DNA of 64,000 bases from Pempheris klunzingeri. Lineage: Eukaryota; Chordata; Actinopteri; Acropomatiformes; Pempheridae. The notes under the pieces were generated by a model, which saw only the letters and a program-made list of their open reading frames with translations, was not told the DNA's origin and did no database searches. The stretch covers positions 17,161,915-17,225,914 of the forward strand of contig NC_092032.1 of NCBI RefSeq assembly GCF_042242105.1, written 5' to 3'. Below, in pieces: positions 28,906 to 63,756 of this stretch (positions within the stretch are counted from its first letter, which is position 1; each line of letters starts with the position of its first letter). A program made the translations under genes and the position numbers.

Positions 28906-28957
28906 CACATGTAAAACACAAACACACTGGTAGGAAAAAACTACCATCACTGTTTGT

Positions 28958-28986
28958 CATTATGGAAGGCACTGCTCCCGATAATG
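28958..28986 (-). promoter_or_regulatory. Iron-responsive element 4 (tfr1 3' UTR)
   Basis: The transcript strand reads CAUUAU-C-GGGAG-CAGUGC-CUUCC-AUAAUG. It has one G-U pair in the upper stem and a fully pairable lower stem. Confidence 0.94.
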
Positions 28987-28993
28987 GATTTTA

Positions 28994-29020
28994 AGTATGG
29001 AAGGCACTGCTTCCGATAGC
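28994..29020 (-). promoter_or_regulatory. Iron-responsive element 3 (tfr1 3' UTR)
   Basis: The transcript strand reads GCUAU-C-GGAAG-CAGUGC-CUUCC-AUACU. The bulge, upper stem and loop are canonical. It lies only 8 bases upstream (5' on the transcript) of IRE 4. Confidence 0.94.
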
Positions 29021-29600
29021 TTTATCATACTATTAACTGCTCCATAGTAGACTGTGCAACATAAATGGCTTTCTTGCAAATCAATTAGCTCAGTTGCTGC
29101 GCTAAAAAAAAAGGGTGTTTGATAATGTTTTGCTTTCTTTTGGTGGCTCCTTGAGCATTTTTTTCCCCCAATTATCATCATTCTGCCATCAAGCGCAGAG
29201 TAAACCCAGTAAAGCGCTTGATTTATTTCTGGGTTTGTGGTGTATAAATAGAGATTCCCAAATATCCACACATATATTCAGTTAATTCTCTTCCTGGTCT
29301 ACTTTTTACGAGACAAATTTAAATACTGACTGACACTAGATCAGGAAAAACTCTTCTCTTCCCTCCATTTCTCCCTTTCAGTGCTTTTTGAAATCGCCAT
29401 GTTGTCAACAGAGCGAGCTCATGTGCGGCAATTTCTCATGATTTCAGAAAAATTACCAATTCTACTGGAAACACGAAAAAGGAAGAAATGAAGGCCACGA
29501 AAAAATCTCACTTTGTCAGGGGCTCCATTTTGTCAGCAACAGTTGAGGAGTCATTTCTGTAGCAGATGCTGCCGTAGGATTCGACAGTATAACCGTCATA

Positions 29601-29627
29601 ATTATGGAAGGCACTGCTTCCGATAAC
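29601..29627 (-). promoter_or_regulatory. Iron-responsive element 2 (tfr1 3' UTR)
   Basis: The transcript strand reads GUUAU-C-GGAAG-CAGUGC-CUUCC-AUAAU. It is a perfect canonical IRE with C bulge, 5-bp upper stem and pairable lower stem, and its core matches mammalian TFRC IREs. Confidence 0.95.
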
Positions 29628-29650
29628 GTCGTATAAAAAGACAAACAATA

Positions 29651-29680
29651 AGCTTATAGTGGGCACTGCCACTGATAAAA
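29651..29680 (-). promoter_or_regulatory. Iron-responsive element 1 (tfr1 3' UTR)
   Basis: On the transcript: lower stem ending UUAU, bulged C, upper stem AGUGG, loop CAGUGC, then CCACU and AUAAG. The five upper-stem pairs are all Watson-Crick, and the C bulge and CAGUGN loop are canonical. IRP1/IRP2 binding here would stabilise the mRNA when iron is low. Confidence 0.92.
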
Positions 29681-30057
29681 AAACTTAAGTATAAATAAGG
29701 TTTCTTGTGTTCTGATGGCAAGAGGTCACAGCAAAGGCTTCGACTGGCCGAGTATGTTGAGGTGCAGGAAGATCTGTCAGTAGTATTTGATTTCTTACAG
29801 TATTTAGTTCACTTTGTTTTTAAAGAATTTACGCTTTTCTTCCTCCTCCTGGACCTTCGACGGTTTACGTCCCAGAACAAAGCCGATCATAAGCCTGTTT
29901 TTAAAGGGTGGGGCTTTGACCTCTGATTGAAAGCTTGTGCTTAAGTGCTGATATTGGAGCTCCTCCGTCTGCTCTGCCTCAAATTTCTTTCCAACGACAC
30001 ACACACACACACACAAACACGCACACGTTCACTACGTAGTCGTCTCCCCCTCCTCCT

Positions 30058-57390: not shown

Positions 57391-57394
57391 ACCT

Positions 57395-58946
57395 TGTTGG
57401 GCTTCACTATACAGTGAATGACACATAGTGAAACCGCATGTTTCTTTGTCTGTAAAACTATTGGGCTCCTTTCCCCAATGCCCCCCAGTTTCACAGATAG
57501 GTGTGAAATCACCCCCGCGCCCAGCTCCACTGTCACCATTGGCCGGAGGGGACACATGATTTTACGACCGCAGGCCCACAAAACCAGTTCACCCCCACTG
57601 AACTCTCTCTCTTTCTCATCGTCTCTCCTGAAGTGGAGAGACCAGGTCTTTCCTGCTCCCTCTCCTCCTGCAGAGGAGAGACCAGCTCTCCTGATCTTTC
57701 CTGAAGAGGAGAGACCAGCTCAACTCAGCTGAGCTCTGCCTCAGTGTGGTCTGTCCAGAGCAGCCACCTCCTTCATGGTAGCGACACAAGGTCCTGCCTG
57801 AAGTAAGCAGATCAGCGCCAGCAGGCACGACCCAGAGTCTGCCAGCTGATAACCAGAACCAACAACAGGAGCACACCAGCAAGTTAGCACAGAGCTGCTA
57901 ACTAACAGGAACAAAGGAGCGACCGGATTCCTCCAGCCTGCAACCACACAGCACGGACACGAACCACACCTTTCCTCCAGCAACAAGCTGAGAAAGCAGC
58001 ACCCTCAAGGACACTCCGTCTCCCCTTTTAAGGACTGGTAACAAACTCTAACTGGGCATAATTAGCATAGCATTACTGCATACATGGTTTACCCTTGTTA
58101 ATGTATTGACTTGCTTTAATGTTCATTGAGTTTGATTATTGTGATGTGTTGTAGATTACTGTGCATCCATTAAGTTTAGTGATGTTAGCCTACAAACTAA
58201 CCATCCTGTCTTAACCTGCACCTTTATCTCTCTCACACACACAGTCTGGCAACAGGCCACTGAGGGACAAGGCTAAGCTAACAGCACTTAGCTTTCCTTT
58301 GTCTGCCTCTGACCCACACCCCAGGGGGTCTGGCCATCACCATTTGGTCTCTCTCCCCCACCTTTGTGGGACCCATCTCACATTCCTCAGCCTTATCACA
58401 CACACACACACACACACACACACTCTTACACTCATATTATTCTAGTTTAGTCATAGAGATTTAGTTAGATTGTTTGATTGATTTTGTTTCTGCAACAGCA
58501 GATGTCTTTAACACCTACTCTGCTCCAGCCGTACTTACAACCGAAGTACAAGTCCTTAATGCATAACAAATGATGTCCCTGAATTTTGCTCTGTTTTAAT
58601 AAATGTTTTAATACTTGCTGTCTCCGTTAATGTTGTACAATTGTGGACACTGCCAACCTCTACACTGTCAAGAACTCCAAAAATCCTTCAGCTAGCTATC
58701 AATGTGGTAATTTTGGTAGTAATTATTAAATTAATTATAAAACATAATTCCAAATTGATAGTTTAGTATTTTTATGAGACTAAATCAATTAAAACGGCTG
58801 TCTTTTCCTCGTTTTTCGAGGTGGTGCCCCAATCGAGGTGGACTTTAATCAAAGTTCATTTATTTTAATAATTATTAATTATCTTTGATAATCATTAATT
58901 ATTTCTGATAGCCAAATTGAACATTACCACTTGTTAAAGCACAACA
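57395..58946 (+). repeat. 5' LTR
   Basis: Starts TGTTGGGCTT and ends GCACAACA (TG...CA). It carries a poly(A) signal AATAAA at about 58,599, a (CA)n tract, and three imperfect repeats of 'gaggagagaccagctc' at about 57,628-57,722. Short open frames inside (up to 104 codons) recur identically in the other LTR and show no protein similarity. Confidence 0.95.
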
Positions 58947-58948
58947 AA

Positions 58949-58966
58949 TGGTGTCCCGTGTGAGGC
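58949..58966 (+). other. Primer-binding site
   Basis: TGGTGTCCCGTGTGAGGC begins two bases after the 5' LTR and starts with the TGG complementary to a tRNA CCA end. I cannot assign the tRNA with confidence. Confidence 0.65.
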
Positions 58967-59402
58967 AGAGTACTGTTGGCAATTGTTCATATTTGTACAA
59001 TATTAATTTTCAGCAAAATTTTGGTCAAAACCAAAATTTTTGAAAAACTTTAAAACGAGCAAAATTATTTTTTTAACCACTAGTCAGTCACAGAAGTACT
59101 TCCAGCTGTACTTTCAAGTGCATTGTGGTGAAAATCAATCTAACTAAATTAAGCTAAAAGCAATTTGAAGAGTTAGTGTAGTGTACTGTGAATTAAGGCT
59201 AAAGCTAATGCTAATACTGGTGCCTATGTTTGAAAGCAAACATTGAAAGCCCCATAGTGTTACATTTAGAGCTTGCTACTGCTGCTAACCCTTCAGGTAA
59301 ACCTATCCTGTAGGAAGATTTTTGGTTCTGCATTTGAATGTCACACATTCAATGCAATCTGTCCATTTGCTGTTAACTTAAGTGCTTCCTGTTTGTTAAG
59401 AC

Positions 59403-59615
59403 ACAGCGTGCCACCGGCCCTGTGAACTTAGAGCTTGAACCTGGCTGTTACTGCCGTGCATTTCAGCCTGATTAAGAAATAGAGCCTGAGAGAGAGCCAC
59501 AGCGTGCTATCAGCCCTGTGAAGTTAGTACCTAGCTGCAACTGCCACGTGTTCCAGCTTGAGTAACTTAAAGAGACATTCCTAACTGTTACTGCCGTGCA
59601 TTTCAGCTAGAGAGT
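59403..59615 (+). repeat. Degenerate tandem repeats in retroelement leader
   Basis: 'cacagcgtgccaccggccct' recurs as 'cacagcgtgctatcagccct' 96 bp later, and 'ctgttactgccgtgcatttc' appears at about 59,442 and 59,587 with a diverged copy between. They sit in the untranslated leader, where packaging signals are expected; that function is inference. Confidence 0.7.
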
Positions 59616-59620
59616 CAAAA

Positions 59621-59851
59621 TTTTGGTGAGTAAACTTTTTTTGTGTAAATCTACATTTACCTTAATTGGCCGTAGTTTGCTATCCCCACCAGTTCCACTA
59701 GATAGTGTATAACTACCTTCTAGTGTAGGCCACCACAGTGTTAGGCTAGTAGTATTCCCCAAGCTACACTTCAAGGTGTCTGCCACCGCAACACCACAGC
59801 CAACCACTTGAAATTTCGCATTTTAACTTGTTTTACCTCACCCCTTTTCAG
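59621..59851 (+). other. Possible intron in retroelement leader
   Basis: A donor-like TTTTG|GTGAGTAAAC (59,621) and an acceptor-like run CCTCACCCCTTTTCAG (ending 59,851) bracket about 230 bases directly upstream of the second gag ATG at 59,858. Splicing would remove the ATG at 59,828 and leave a short leader before ATGGAG. Confidence 0.4.
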
Positions 59852-59857
59852 GCAACA

Positions 59858-61654
59858 ATGGAGAACCCCTGTGTAGAACAGTTTATTTCTTCCCTAGCAC
59901 AGAGCCTAAAGCCCGGCTACCCCGAATTCATTAACAAATTGAATTTCAGTAAGTGTACAGAAGAGATAGACTCCCTACTCAACGACAGGTGTGATGCACA
60001 GACTGCATCCAAGGGCTCCTTGTTAAAATGCTTGCTTTTGACTTTTCACAGGCAAACCAGCCTCGCCCTTCAGAGTAGAGCAGCCATAGAGAAGGAGGTA
60101 GAAATCCTGAGAGCGCAAAATGCTAGCCTCTTCCATGAGGTTCAGATGGCTAATAAGAAAGCCCTGCGCTACTTAGAAGACCTGCACACAGCAGAGTTAG
60201 ATCTCTGTTCACAGAAAGAAGAAATGTATAGACTGAAGTCAGAACATTTGGCCCGACCAGAGTCGATCAGCCAGTGTGATTCCGGTTACTCCGATTCACA
60301 CTCTTCTACCAGTGACAGGTTCAGTTTTTCCCCAAACAGAGGACATGAATTATTCCCACCTGAACACAAGTTCTTGGGAATGAAGTCAGCCCCTCAGCCT
60401 CCGCTGAGAGACCGAGCTCAAAGCCACCTGACTTCCCATTCCTCTGAAACAGACATAGAGGAGTTGTCTAGCATATCTTCTAGAAGATATTCCGTCCCAA
60501 GTCCCTCATTCACATCACTGCACGACACATTTCTCCATGCTTGTCCCTCCAAAGATGGGACTAGAACAGTCCAGGACTGCTCAGCCTCCTCTCTGCATCA
60601 CCGTCAGAGTGGCCGCTGTTCAGCCCCTGTTCTTCCACCACAGAGAAGTGTAGGGCATGATTTACATATCAATGACACTAGCTTAGTCTCGCCTTCACAG
60701 AGTCCCCGCCTTGAAGAGCTTGAGCTTCTAGCTAGAAGCATTGACAGGTTTGATCCAGACAACTGTGATCACCAAGTTGAGGACTATTTCAGGGAGCTAG
60801 ACTACAACTTAATTGACTTACCCCATGCAACTGAAAGGGAGAAAGTTAGACTTGTGTGGAAAACCAGCTCTAAAGCAGCCCACAAGTTTATACAGTCACG
60901 ACCTCCCAGTGTCAGAAATGAGTATAAATTGCTACGTCAAGCACTGACAGAAGAATTTTCCTGTGCCACTGACGACACCACAGCAATAGTTGCGGCCCTA
61001 CAAATTAAGCATGCCCGTCGTGAGCATCCAAAAGAGTACTACAAACGTTTGAGACAGGCATATTTCCAGGGAAAGAATGCACCAGGCTTAGAAGAAAGCT
61101 CCACCTTCAAGGCCTTATTCTTGAGGAACCTCCACCCATGTGTGCGCACTCACGTTGTACTCAGGACACAAGAAGGTGACCCCTCATTGCAGGAGATCCG
61201 GAAGATGACACAGGTAGTCTGGGAAACTATTGTCTCTTCCAAAGCAAGGGGGGGGACAAGTGAGCCACCCAGCTCACACACCAAGGTGTTAAACAGGTCA
61301 GCTGCCCCAAAAGTTCACCCTCACAACAGACGGAAGGGGGGTGACAAAAGACCACATAGGGACACTGAGCGTAACCACCAGGTCCGTCCACTGCCCAGGG
61401 ATAGACATTCCAAGCATAGGAGCAGGAGACTGCCATATGCAGAAATCCAGGCAAGGAACAATGACCAGGTAGCGTACGGGTCAGATGATGACTACAGCAT
61501 CTCTGACTGCAGCTCAGAACATGGCCATAATCTACCCGACACTGACAGTGACTCTGAATGTCTCTCTCCCTCTGGCTACCAGGAGCGTTACAGCCCTGGG
61601 CCAAGAAAGAATAAGAGCTCTAGAGCTCACTCCTTTTGGTCATGGCAGCACTGA
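59858..61654 (+). CDS. Gag-like protein of LTR retroelement
   Basis: A single open frame of 608 codons from the first ATG (59,828), or 598 from the second at 59,858, preferred because it follows a splice-acceptor-like site and has an A at -3 and G at +4. Approximate layout counted from 59,828: heptad-rich N-terminal region (85-140), Ser-rich linker (150-260), capsid-like helical region (290-470; RFDPDNCDHQVEDYF, then EYKLLRQALTEEF), strongly basic segment (495-535) and an acidic Ser/Asp tail (548-578). No CCHC zinc knuckle is visible; the basic stretch may bind RNA instead. It is intact, with no stops. Similarity to Gypsy/retroviral gag is inferred from layout and motif spacing. It could also be called a novel gag-family ORF. 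Confidence 0.75.
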   Translation: MENPCVEQFISSLAQSLKPGYPEFINKLNFSKCTEEIDSLLNDRCDAQTASKGSLLKCLLLTFHRQTSLALQSRAAIEKEVEILRAQNASLFHEVQMANKKALRYLEDLHTAELDLCSQKEEMYRLKSEHLARPESISQCDSGYSDSHSSTSDRFSFSPNRGHELFPPEHKFLGMKSAPQPPLRDRAQSHLTSHSSETDIEELSSISSRRYSVPSPSFTSLHDTFLHACPSKDGTRTVQDCSASSLHHRQSGRCSAPVLPPQRSVGHDLHINDTSLVSPSQSPRLEELELLARSIDRFDPDNCDHQVEDYFRELDYNLIDLPHATEREKVRLVWKTSSKAAHKFIQSRPPSVRNEYKLLRQALTEEFSCATDDTTAIVAALQIKHARREHPKEYYKRLRQAYFQGKNAPGLEESSTFKALFLRNLHPCVRTHVVLRTQEGDPSLQEIRKMTQVVWETIVSSKARGGTSEPPSSHTKVLNRSAAPKVHPHNRRKGGDKRPHRDTERNHQVRPLPRDRHSKHRSRRLPYAEIQARNNDQVAYGSDDDYSISDCSSEHGHNLPDTDSDSECLSPSGYQERYSPGPRKNKSSRAHSFWSWQH

Positions 61655-62189
61655 CCAGATGACAGACACCCAATCTACCTCACCTTCACTACAGTTATTT
61701 AGGCAAATTTGAATTTGTTAGCAACAGCAGCAAACTCATTTGAGCACTCAGTAATAAACAAACATTACTGAAAGCCTAAATTCTGATTGGATTCAACACC
61801 ACTGCTCAACTTCCAAGTACACTTGGACCAACTTCATATTTTGTCAGTAAAATCATACAAAACACACGTAGGACACACTGTTATGACTTTGTCATTTTAG
61901 GTGCCTCTATCTCTGCTACATAACACTGACATTTCCTGTTCCCACTAACCCTCACTAACAACTGAGAAACACAGGTTATTAGGATGCAGTATGTCATTGT
62001 TGTGTATGAAGAACTGTTTTGTAATGTATGTCTGTTCTAGCTTAGCCAAGATAGATTCAGCATATGCCCAGTTGGATAACAAACTGCCCAGTAGTTACCA
62101 ACTTGTTTCACCTGGACTGACAAAAATGAACAATGGCCGAAACATGCACAATTATCCCATCAGCATCCCACATCAGGTGACATCCTGAT
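61655..62189 (+). other. Retroelement region between gag and PPT
   Basis: There is no polymerase or envelope motif in any frame. Only a 65-codon frame (61,991-62,188) is open, with no recognised similarity. This is where pol would have been lost. Confidence 0.6.
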
Positions 62190-62200
62190 GGCAGGGGGGA
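62190..62200 (+). other. Polypurine tract
   Basis: GGCAGGGGGGA immediately precedes the 3' LTR, the expected site of plus-strand priming. Confidence 0.8.
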
Positions 62201-63752
62201 TGTTGGGCTTCACTATACAGTGAATGACACATAGTGAAACCGCATGTTTCTTTGTCTGTAAAACTATTGGGCTCCTTTCCCCAATGCCCCCCAGTTTCAC
62301 AGATAGGTGTGAAATCACCCCCGCGCCCAGCTCCACTGTCACCATTGGCCGGAGGGGACACATGATTTTACGACCGCAGGCCCACAAAACCAGTTCACCC
62401 CCACTGAACTCTCTCTCTTTCTCATCGTCTCTCCTGAAGTGGAGAGACCAGGTCTTTCCTGCTCCCTCTCCTCCTGCAGAGGAGAGACCAGCTCTCCTGA
62501 TCTTTCCTGAAGAGGAGAGACCAGCTCAACTCAGCTGAGCTCTGCCTCAGTGTGGTCTGTCCAGAGCAGCCACCTCCTTCATGGTAGCGACACAAGGTCC
62601 TGCCTGAAGTAAGCAGATCAGCGCCAGCAGGCACGACCCAGAGTCTGCCAGCTGATAACCAGAACCAACAACAGGAGCACACCAGCAAGTTAGCACAGAG
62701 CTGCTAACTAACAGGAACAAAGGAGCGACCGGATTCCTCCAGCCTGCAACCACACAGCACGGACACGAACCACACCTTTCCTCCAGCAACAAGCTGAGAA
62801 AGCAGCACCCTCAAGGACACTCCGTCTCCCCTTTTAAGGACTGGTAACAAACTCTAACTGGGCATAATTAGCATAGCATTACTGCATACATGGTTTACCC
62901 TTGTTAATGTATTGACTTGCTTTAATGTTCATTGAGTTTGATTATTGTGATGTGTTGTAGATTACTGTGCATCCATTAAGTTTAGTGATGTTAGCCTACA
63001 AACTAACCATCCTGTCTTAACCTGCACCTTTATCTCTCTCACACACACAGTCTGGCAACAGGCCACTGAGGGACAAGGCTAAGCTAACAGCACTTAGCTT
63101 TCCTTTGTCTGCCTCTGACCCACACCCCAGGGGGTCTGGCCATCACCATTTGGTCTCTCTCCCCCACCTTTGTGGGACCCATCTCACATTCCTCAGCCTT
63201 ATCACACACACACACACACACACACACACTCTTACACTCATATTATTCTAGTTTAGTCATAGAGATTTAGTTAGATTGTTTGATTGATTTTGTTTCTGCA
63301 ACAGCAGATGTCTTTAACACCTACTCTGCTCCAGCCGTACTTACAACCGAAGTACAAGTCCTTAATGCATAACAAATGATGTCCCTGAATTTTGCTCTGT
63401 TTTAATAAATGTTTTAATACTTGCTGTCTCCGTTAATGTTGTACAATTGTGGACACTGCCAACCTCTACACTGTCAAGAACTCCAAAAATCCTTCAGCTA
63501 GCTATCAATGTGGTAATTTTGGTAGTAATTATTAAATTAATTATAAAACATAATTCCAAATTGATAGTTTAGTATTTTTATGAGACTAAATCAATTAAAA
63601 CGGCTGTCTTTTCCTCGTTTTTCGAGGTGGTGCCCCAATCGAGGTGGACTTTAATCAAAGTTCATTTATTTTAATAATTATTAATTATCTTTGATAATCA
63701 TTAATTATTTCTGATAGCCAAATTGAACATTACCACTTGTTAAAGCACAACA
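62201..63752 (+). repeat. 3' LTR
   Basis: The same 1552 bp as the 5' LTR, preceded directly by the purine-rich GGCAGGGGGGA and followed by the ACCT duplication. Apparent identity of the two LTRs points to very recent insertion. Confidence 0.95.
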
Positions 63753-63756
63753 ACCT

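What the first reader, a model, noticed from the sequence alone, without database searches (positions are those of the whole stretch)
57391..63756. Recently inserted gag-only LTR retroelement
A structurally complete element (identical-length LTRs, matching microsatellite length in both, TSD, PBS, PPT) keeps one uninterrupted gag-like ORF but no pol. Gag-only 'TR-GAG' elements are described in plants; an intact, apparently active animal counterpart is notable. The retained ORF suggests Gag acts in cis while pol comes from a partner.
Basis: partly seen in the sequence, partly recalled or inferred. Interest (0 to 1): 0.78.

Follow-up and report, generated by a model that had tools for sequence, protein, structure and literature searches.

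The report
Gag-only jumping element in fish
A recently inserted fish mobile element makes only its own shell protein and probably borrows the copying and inserting enzymes of a rarer, complete relative in the same genome; a similar arrangement is known in zebrafish, but here a likely helper is also found.

Summary
Window 57391-63756 is a complete LTR element: two 1552-bp LTRs with 0 differences, 4-bp TSD, PBS, PPT and one 598-aa ORF. The ORF is a Gag with a predicted coiled coil and CA-like domain. It is not a deleted copy: 48 (near-)full-length gag matches were found, 44 without a stop, and 39 of 40 scored copies run unbroken from gag through tail and PPT into the LTR, the fortieth ending 22 bp short. 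In 13 copies read, gag shows purifying selection.

A probable pol donor lies in the same genome: a low-copy lokiretrovirus-type element (gag-TGA-pol-env, two RNase H domains) with the same LTR tips, PBS, purine tract and TSD length. Only one open pol frame was found.

The kind is known: zebrafish Bik-1 and Bik-2 are gag-only lokiretrovirus relatives (PMC10996621). Added here: a candidate donor, a second gag-bearing RT-less family, a selection test, and copies whose two LTRs end differently. Dependence on this donor and action of Gag in cis are inferred.

The parts
57391..57394 (.). 5' copy of the 4-bp target site duplication (ACCT)
57395..58946 (+). 5' LTR, 1552 bp, TG...CA
   Evidence: identical to 62201-63752
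58598..58603 (+). AATAAA poly(A) signal in the LTR; 9 bp before the base (58612) after which five other copies have a short alternative 5' LTR end
   Evidence: sequence
58949..58965 (+). primer binding site, complementary to the elongator tRNA-Met 3' end with one mismatch (4 of 13 copies match perfectly)
   Evidence: tRNA recalled, scored as tRNA-Met(cat) by ARAGORN; its presence in this genome not checked
58947..59857 (+). untranslated leader; all 40 scored copies of it lie before a gag of this family
59858..61654 (+). gag ORF, 598 aa
60011..60247 (+). predicted N-terminal coiled coil of Gag (residues 52-130)
60704..61246 (+). capsid (CA)-like domain of Gag (residues 283-463)
61655..62200 (+). 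untranslated tail between gag stop and 3' LTR; no pol
62190..62200 (+). polypurine tract GGCAGGGGGGA, identical in 13 of 13 copies
62201..63752 (+). 3' LTR
63753..63756 (.). 3' copy of the target site duplication (ACCT)

Best explanation
This is a young copy of a successful gag-only, semi-autonomous LTR element related to lokiretroviruses in a teleost. Its RNA encodes Gag and carries LTR tips, PBS and PPT that fit a lokiretrovirus-type reverse transcriptase and integrase. Gag is kept because it packages its own RNA (inferred). RT, RNase H and integrase come in trans, most likely as the Gag-Pol of a rare lokiretrovirus-type element in the same genome, which joins mixed particles through the conserved CA domain (inferred). 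Shown: structure, copy number, absence of pol in the copies seen, constraint on gag, identical LTRs, shared ends, existence of the donor-type pol. Inferred: particle formation, co-assembly, packaging in cis.
For: 0 of 1552 LTR differences and a TSD. 13 of 13 complete copies gag-only with no stop in gag and 4-bp TSDs. 44 of 48 (near-)full-length gag matches without a stop. 39 of 40 scored copies unbroken from gag end into the LTR, the other up to 22 bp before the end of the query, and 40 of 40 scored leaders before a gag of the family. Purifying selection, strongest in CA. CA-like fold. A lokiretrovirus-type element with an open 1739-aa pol frame and env shares PBS, purine tract, LTR tips and 4-bp TSD. 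None of the eight donor-type RT places lies inside one of the 48 copies.
Against: No expression or transposition data. Gag of this family and of the partner family are far apart (40-48% identity over CA-centred stretches), and their leaders share nothing above chance beyond the PBS, so mobilisation by exactly this partner is not shown. Only part of the candidates was scored (73 of 140, 40 of 67, 73 of 704), and the assembly may lack a closer autonomous copy. The disordered linker and tail of Gag show little constraint. Short common termini could be shared by other retroelements, whose ends I did not examine.
Confidence: 0.82

Rival explanations
1. Plain deletion derivative: an autonomous element with this gag lost pol recently and this copy, or a small burst, is dead-end debris.
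For: A related family (L029, L039, L040) does look like an internally deleted gag-pol element with an integrase remnant.
Against: Gag relatives of similar length exist in other fishes (14 of the 15 best hits have 560-612 aa), although that search admits only proteins of 0.55 to 1.75 times the query length, so Gag-Pol fusions would not show.
Confidence: 0.05
2. Host-beneficial Gag: the frame is kept because the fish uses the protein, as proposed for zebrafish Bik-1 and Bik-2 ('addiction' model), while spread by borrowed pol is secondary.
For: Gag of Bik-1 and Bik-2 is reported as needed in zebrafish development and has a coiled coil plus CA layout (PMC10996621). Constraint is seen here too.
Against: 44 stop-free frames on many contigs, with near-identical LTRs where read, point to selection on replication of the element rather than on one locus. 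No function data in this host.
Confidence: 0.1
3. Mobilised by another retroelement: pol comes from some other Gypsy-type family rather than the lokiretrovirus-type one.
For: Many other open pol frames are in the genome, at 37% identity or less to the lokiretrovirus-type RT.
Against: The lokiretrovirus-type element and L029 share LTR tips (TGTTGGGC...CAACA), the tRNA-Met PBS, the purine tract and TSD length with this family and hold the nearest Gag relatives found in the genome outside the family. PBS and LTR ends of the other families were not examined.
Confidence: 0.15

Closest known systems
Zebrafish BHIKHARI elements Bik-1 and Bik-2 (PMC10996621, preprint; sections 5 and 11 and passages read)
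   Same: Gag-only LTR elements related to lokiretroviruses; Bik-1 Gag of 617 aa (598 here) with N-terminal coiled coil and CA; no pol; recent insertions.
   Different: Other fish; sequence kinship not established. Here 44 stop-free gag matches against eight intact Bik-1 copies, and a candidate pol donor in the same genome; for Bik-1 the parts I read infer a partner but name none.
Lokiretroviruses (PMC9040795, abstract and passages)
   Same: The partner family here has dual RNase H, gag-pol-env order and an env with weak Fusion_gly similarity; Gag CA is homologous.
   Different: The window element has neither pol nor env, and its Gag lies on the other side of a fully supported branch.
Plant TR-GAG elements (search listings only; features recalled)
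   Same: LTRs, PBS, PPT and a gag ORF without pol.
   Different: Plant lineages; no common descent claimed.
Wheat RLG_Sabrina_SA, 'semi-autonomous' (PMC9744471, passages)
   Same: Keeps structural coding capacity without RT and integrase.
   Different: Keeps Gag plus protease; no protease match here.

Membership tests
gag-only (TR-GAG-like) LTR element | two LTRs, PBS, PPT, TSD | tested here: met
gag-only (TR-GAG-like) LTR element | intact gag ORF and no pol, as a family trait | tested here: met
   (of the copies scored)
gag-only (TR-GAG-like) LTR element | depends on pol supplied in trans | not testable with these tools
   inferred from recent insertion without pol; donor-type pol present
Bik-type (lokiretrovirus-related gag-only) element | Gag with N-terminal coiled coil and retroviral CA | tested here: met
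   predicted model only:
Bik-type (lokiretrovirus-related gag-only) element | sequence kinship with Bik Gag | tested here: inconclusive
   28 hits, 6 with a name, none of those zebrafish; the search needs shared 5-residue words
Bik-type (lokiretrovirus-related gag-only) element | insertion polymorphism within the species | not testable with these tools
   one assembly only
Lokiretrovirus (partner family L030/L032/L033) | dual RNase H in pol | tested here: met
   RT_RNaseH_2/RT_RNaseH and RNase_H in separate stretches
Lokiretrovirus (partner family L030/L032/L033) | Env similar to Mononegavirales fusion glycoproteins | tested here: inconclusive
   Fusion_gly E 2.8e-6, 26.3 bits, below the curated cut-off of 29.8
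Lokiretrovirus (partner family L030/L032/L033) | RT places it with lokiretroviruses in a tree | not tested
   no reference lokiretrovirus RT at hand

The most novel reading that the evidence does not exclude
The family belongs to an old, separate gag-only lineage spread over spiny-rayed fishes that lives permanently off rare lokiretroviruses. In addition, a sub-lineage with a short 5' LTR end and a long 3' LTR end spreads only when its RNA is packaged together with a long-ended RNA, so that the two ends come from different RNAs (strand transfer between two packaged RNAs).
Probability: 0.35. Interest if true: 0.68.

Novelty: new member of a known kind. Interest (0 to 1): 0.52.

Why it matters
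Gag-only vertebrate elements raise two open questions: who supplies pol, and why Gag is kept. This genome holds a numerous, recently active gag-only family together with a low-copy, probably lokiretrovirus donor that has matching cis-acting ends, so division of labour between Gag and Pol can be studied in one host. The selection test separates a maintained Gag from a merely young one. The copies with unequal LTR ends offer a natural marker of strand transfer between packaged RNAs, if that reading is right.

Tried and rejected
Rejected: simple deletion copy; chance ORF; host cellular gene (LTRs, TSDs, CA-like fold). An early alignment suggested 7 mismatches between the LTRs of L010 and of L011; this came from aligning the short end, and over the shared part there are 0 substitutions in either.

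Not answered, machine busy. The questions of gag, leader and LTR-end patterns were answered on a later try; the tRNA check, asked 12 times, never was; the integrase-fragment query was replaced by an RT query.

Full report
1. The element. The two LTRs (57395-58946 and 62201-63752) have 1552 bp each and differ at no position; the 4-bp TSD is ACCT. Between them lie a PBS, a 911-bp leader, one 598-aa ORF and a 546-bp tail that ends in a purine tract. The next longest stop-to-stop frame of the internal region has 130 aa, antisense within gag.

3. Not a broken copy. With Gag as query, 73 of 140 candidates were scored and 79 matches listed. 48 are full length or nearly so (47 cover residues 1-598, one 5-598) at 95% identity or more, and 44 of the 48 have no stop. 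With the stretch from gag end to LTR start as query, 40 of 67 candidates were scored; all 40 are single stretches of 841-862 bp, 39 reach the last or last but one base of the query, one stops 22 bp earlier, before the PPT; 39 lie over one of the 48 gags, the other over a frameshifted copy. With the leader, 40 of 76 candidates were scored; 39 abut one of the 48 gags, the other a gag with stops. I read 13 complete copies (window, L009-L019, L024), picked as the best LTR matches: 13 of 13 have gag without a stop (1797 or 1782 nt), an identical PPT and 4-bp TSDs. In the seven copies besides the window with both LTRs fully read and of the usual type (L009, L012-L014, L017, L019, L024), LTR pairs differ by 0 to 3 substitutions; six of the seven also have one indel event, of 2 to 39 columns. 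Of 16 unpaired LTR hits, nine were fetched: six are complete LTRs with no other part of the element found within about 5 kb (L021, L022, L023, L025, L026, L027; L022 has a diverged gag scrap), one is a partial LTR (L028), and two belong to elements (L020, partly masked; L024).

4. Selection. Pairwise over 13 gags: mean dS 0.062, dN 0.013, ratio 0.21. Of 141 variants 76 are synonymous and 65 not. With the same mutation types and CpG context placed at random, 41.8 synonymous, 94.7 nonsynonymous and 4.6 stops are expected, and 0 of 2000 simulations reach 76. CA is tightest (9 nonsynonymous, 25 synonymous); linker (22 and 15) and tail (21 and 18) show little constraint. Relatedness of copies is not modelled, and the 13 copies are not a random draw. 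Since this gag was not seen with pol, the constraint is best read as selection on Gag of gag-only elements.

5. The partner. The next Gag relatives in this genome, 11 matches with frames of 568-666 aa, are 40-48% identical over CA-centred stretches. One of them (L030, with neighbours L032 and L033) has gag, an in-frame TGA, a 1739-aa open pol frame with RVT_1, two RNase H regions, Integrase_H2C2 and rve, and an ORF of at least 567 aa with similarity to Fusion_gly below the curated cut-off. Its LTRs are 99.9% identical over the 1616 columns compared, its TSD is ACCT, its LTRs begin TGTTGGGC and end CAACA, the PBS is TGGTGCCCCGTGTGAGG, and the purine tract abuts TGTTGGGC. Dual RNase H and such an Env are named as lokiretrovirus features in PMC9040795; an RT tree was not made. 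A search with RT and RNase H (73 of 704 candidates scored) found matches of 55% identity or more at eight places; only one has an open frame over the whole query, the others are broken or partial; all further matches have 37% or less. None of the eight lies inside one of the 48 copies. One partial gag of the window's family (C10:2736741, not among the 48) lies 6 kb downstream of an RT fragment on the same strand, the wrong order for gag-pol. So a rare donor stands against a numerous gag-only family. In L029 and L030 the gag stop TGA is followed by CTA, known to me (recalled, no call) as a readthrough context; the 13 gag-only copies have CCA, CCG, CCT or CAG there.

6. A second gag-bearing, RT-less family. 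L029 carries an open 666-aa gag frame followed by an integrase remnant without RT, with the same PBS and purine tract; L039 and L040 match it at 99% over 2.3 kb each, from within gag to within the 3' LTR. Eight of the 11 gag matches of point 5 are taken as this type by identity and frame length, with no donor-type RT beside them; three of the eight were read, two of them only in that stretch. The other three stand before pol sequence.

7. Age of the lineage. 19 Gags (window and P0001-P0018) form one side of a branch with full support, and six lokiretrovirus-type Gags the other (midpoint root, one long branch flagged, many inner forks unresolved). Named hosts in the first group are Seriola, Sebastes, Sparus and Epinephelus. 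Whether those relatives are gag-only could not be seen: protein hits come without context, and the search does not admit proteins over 1.75 times the query length. Horizontal spread is also possible.

8. Unequal LTR ends. The 19 bp CCCAGCGGTGCCTCCAACA occur exactly five times in the genome, each between the LTR body and the PBS of a gag-only copy. Four of the five were read: all have the short 5' end and a full-length 3' LTR. The shared parts of the two LTRs are identical in L010 (0 of 1219) and in the C20 copy (0 of 1225), differ by a 4-nt microsatellite change in L011, and by 2 mismatches and 4 gap columns of 1257 in the C17 copy. Ordinary reverse transcription makes both ends alike. My reading (inference) is that the first strand begins on a long-ended RNA, jumps to a short-ended one, and the second transfer uses R instead of the PBS. 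No exact short end was found at a 3' LTR; ten further matches with one or two mismatches were not read, so short 3' LTRs are not excluded.

9. Primer. The PBS fits elongator tRNA-Met, whose sequence I recalled; ARAGORN calls it tRNA-Met(cat). The search for it in the genome did not complete. Of 13 copies 4 match perfectly over 17 nt; the window copy has one mismatch; the other 8 carry small changes.

10. What is known. PMC10996621 (preprint; [quoted passage not shown] The window element works like these and I file it as a new member of that kind by organisation; kinship with Bik by sequence is not established. Paper searches for gag-only or nonautonomous elements, lokiretrovirus and bhikhari (15 of 42 listed) showed, in the listings seen, no description of this family or of a pol partner; most subscription papers are not in that library, and two zebrafish transposon papers listed were not opened. 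PMC9744471 and PMC8672886 were seen as passages, PMC12440569 as abstract and outline, the TR-GAG papers as search listings only.

11. Verdict. Observation confirmed; mechanism likely but partly inferred; kind already known; the added value is the candidate donor, the selection test and the unequal LTR ends.

Noticed in passing
L010, L011, L041/L043 (C17), L042/L044 (C20); fifth copy at C22:16201588 not read: Five gag-only copies have a short alternative 5' LTR end; in the four read the 3' LTR is of full length and the shared parts of the two LTRs are (nearly) identical. This does not follow from ordinary reverse transcription.
   Followed up: partly
L029 1654-4311; L039; L040: Second family with an open gag frame, an integrase remnant and no RT; same PBS and purine tract.
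   Followed up: partly
L032 (reverse strand 1874-1992): The lokiretrovirus-type element appears to sit inside an antisense LTR fragment of the window's family (92.5% over 120 bp): a nested insertion.
   Followed up: no
window 28957-29681, minus strand: Four iron response elements (Rfam IRE_II), which suggests the 3' UTR of a transferrin receptor gene (recalled).
   Followed up: no
window 58565-58579 and 58943-58957: The LTR holds an internal echo of its own LTR-end/PBS junction (AACAAATGATGTCCC against AACAAATGGTGTCCC), perhaps a trace of an older, shorter LTR.
   Followed up: no
C15:8550415 and C15:8555294: Two gag copies 4879 bp apart, each with one TAG: probably a tandem pair sharing an LTR.
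   Followed up: no
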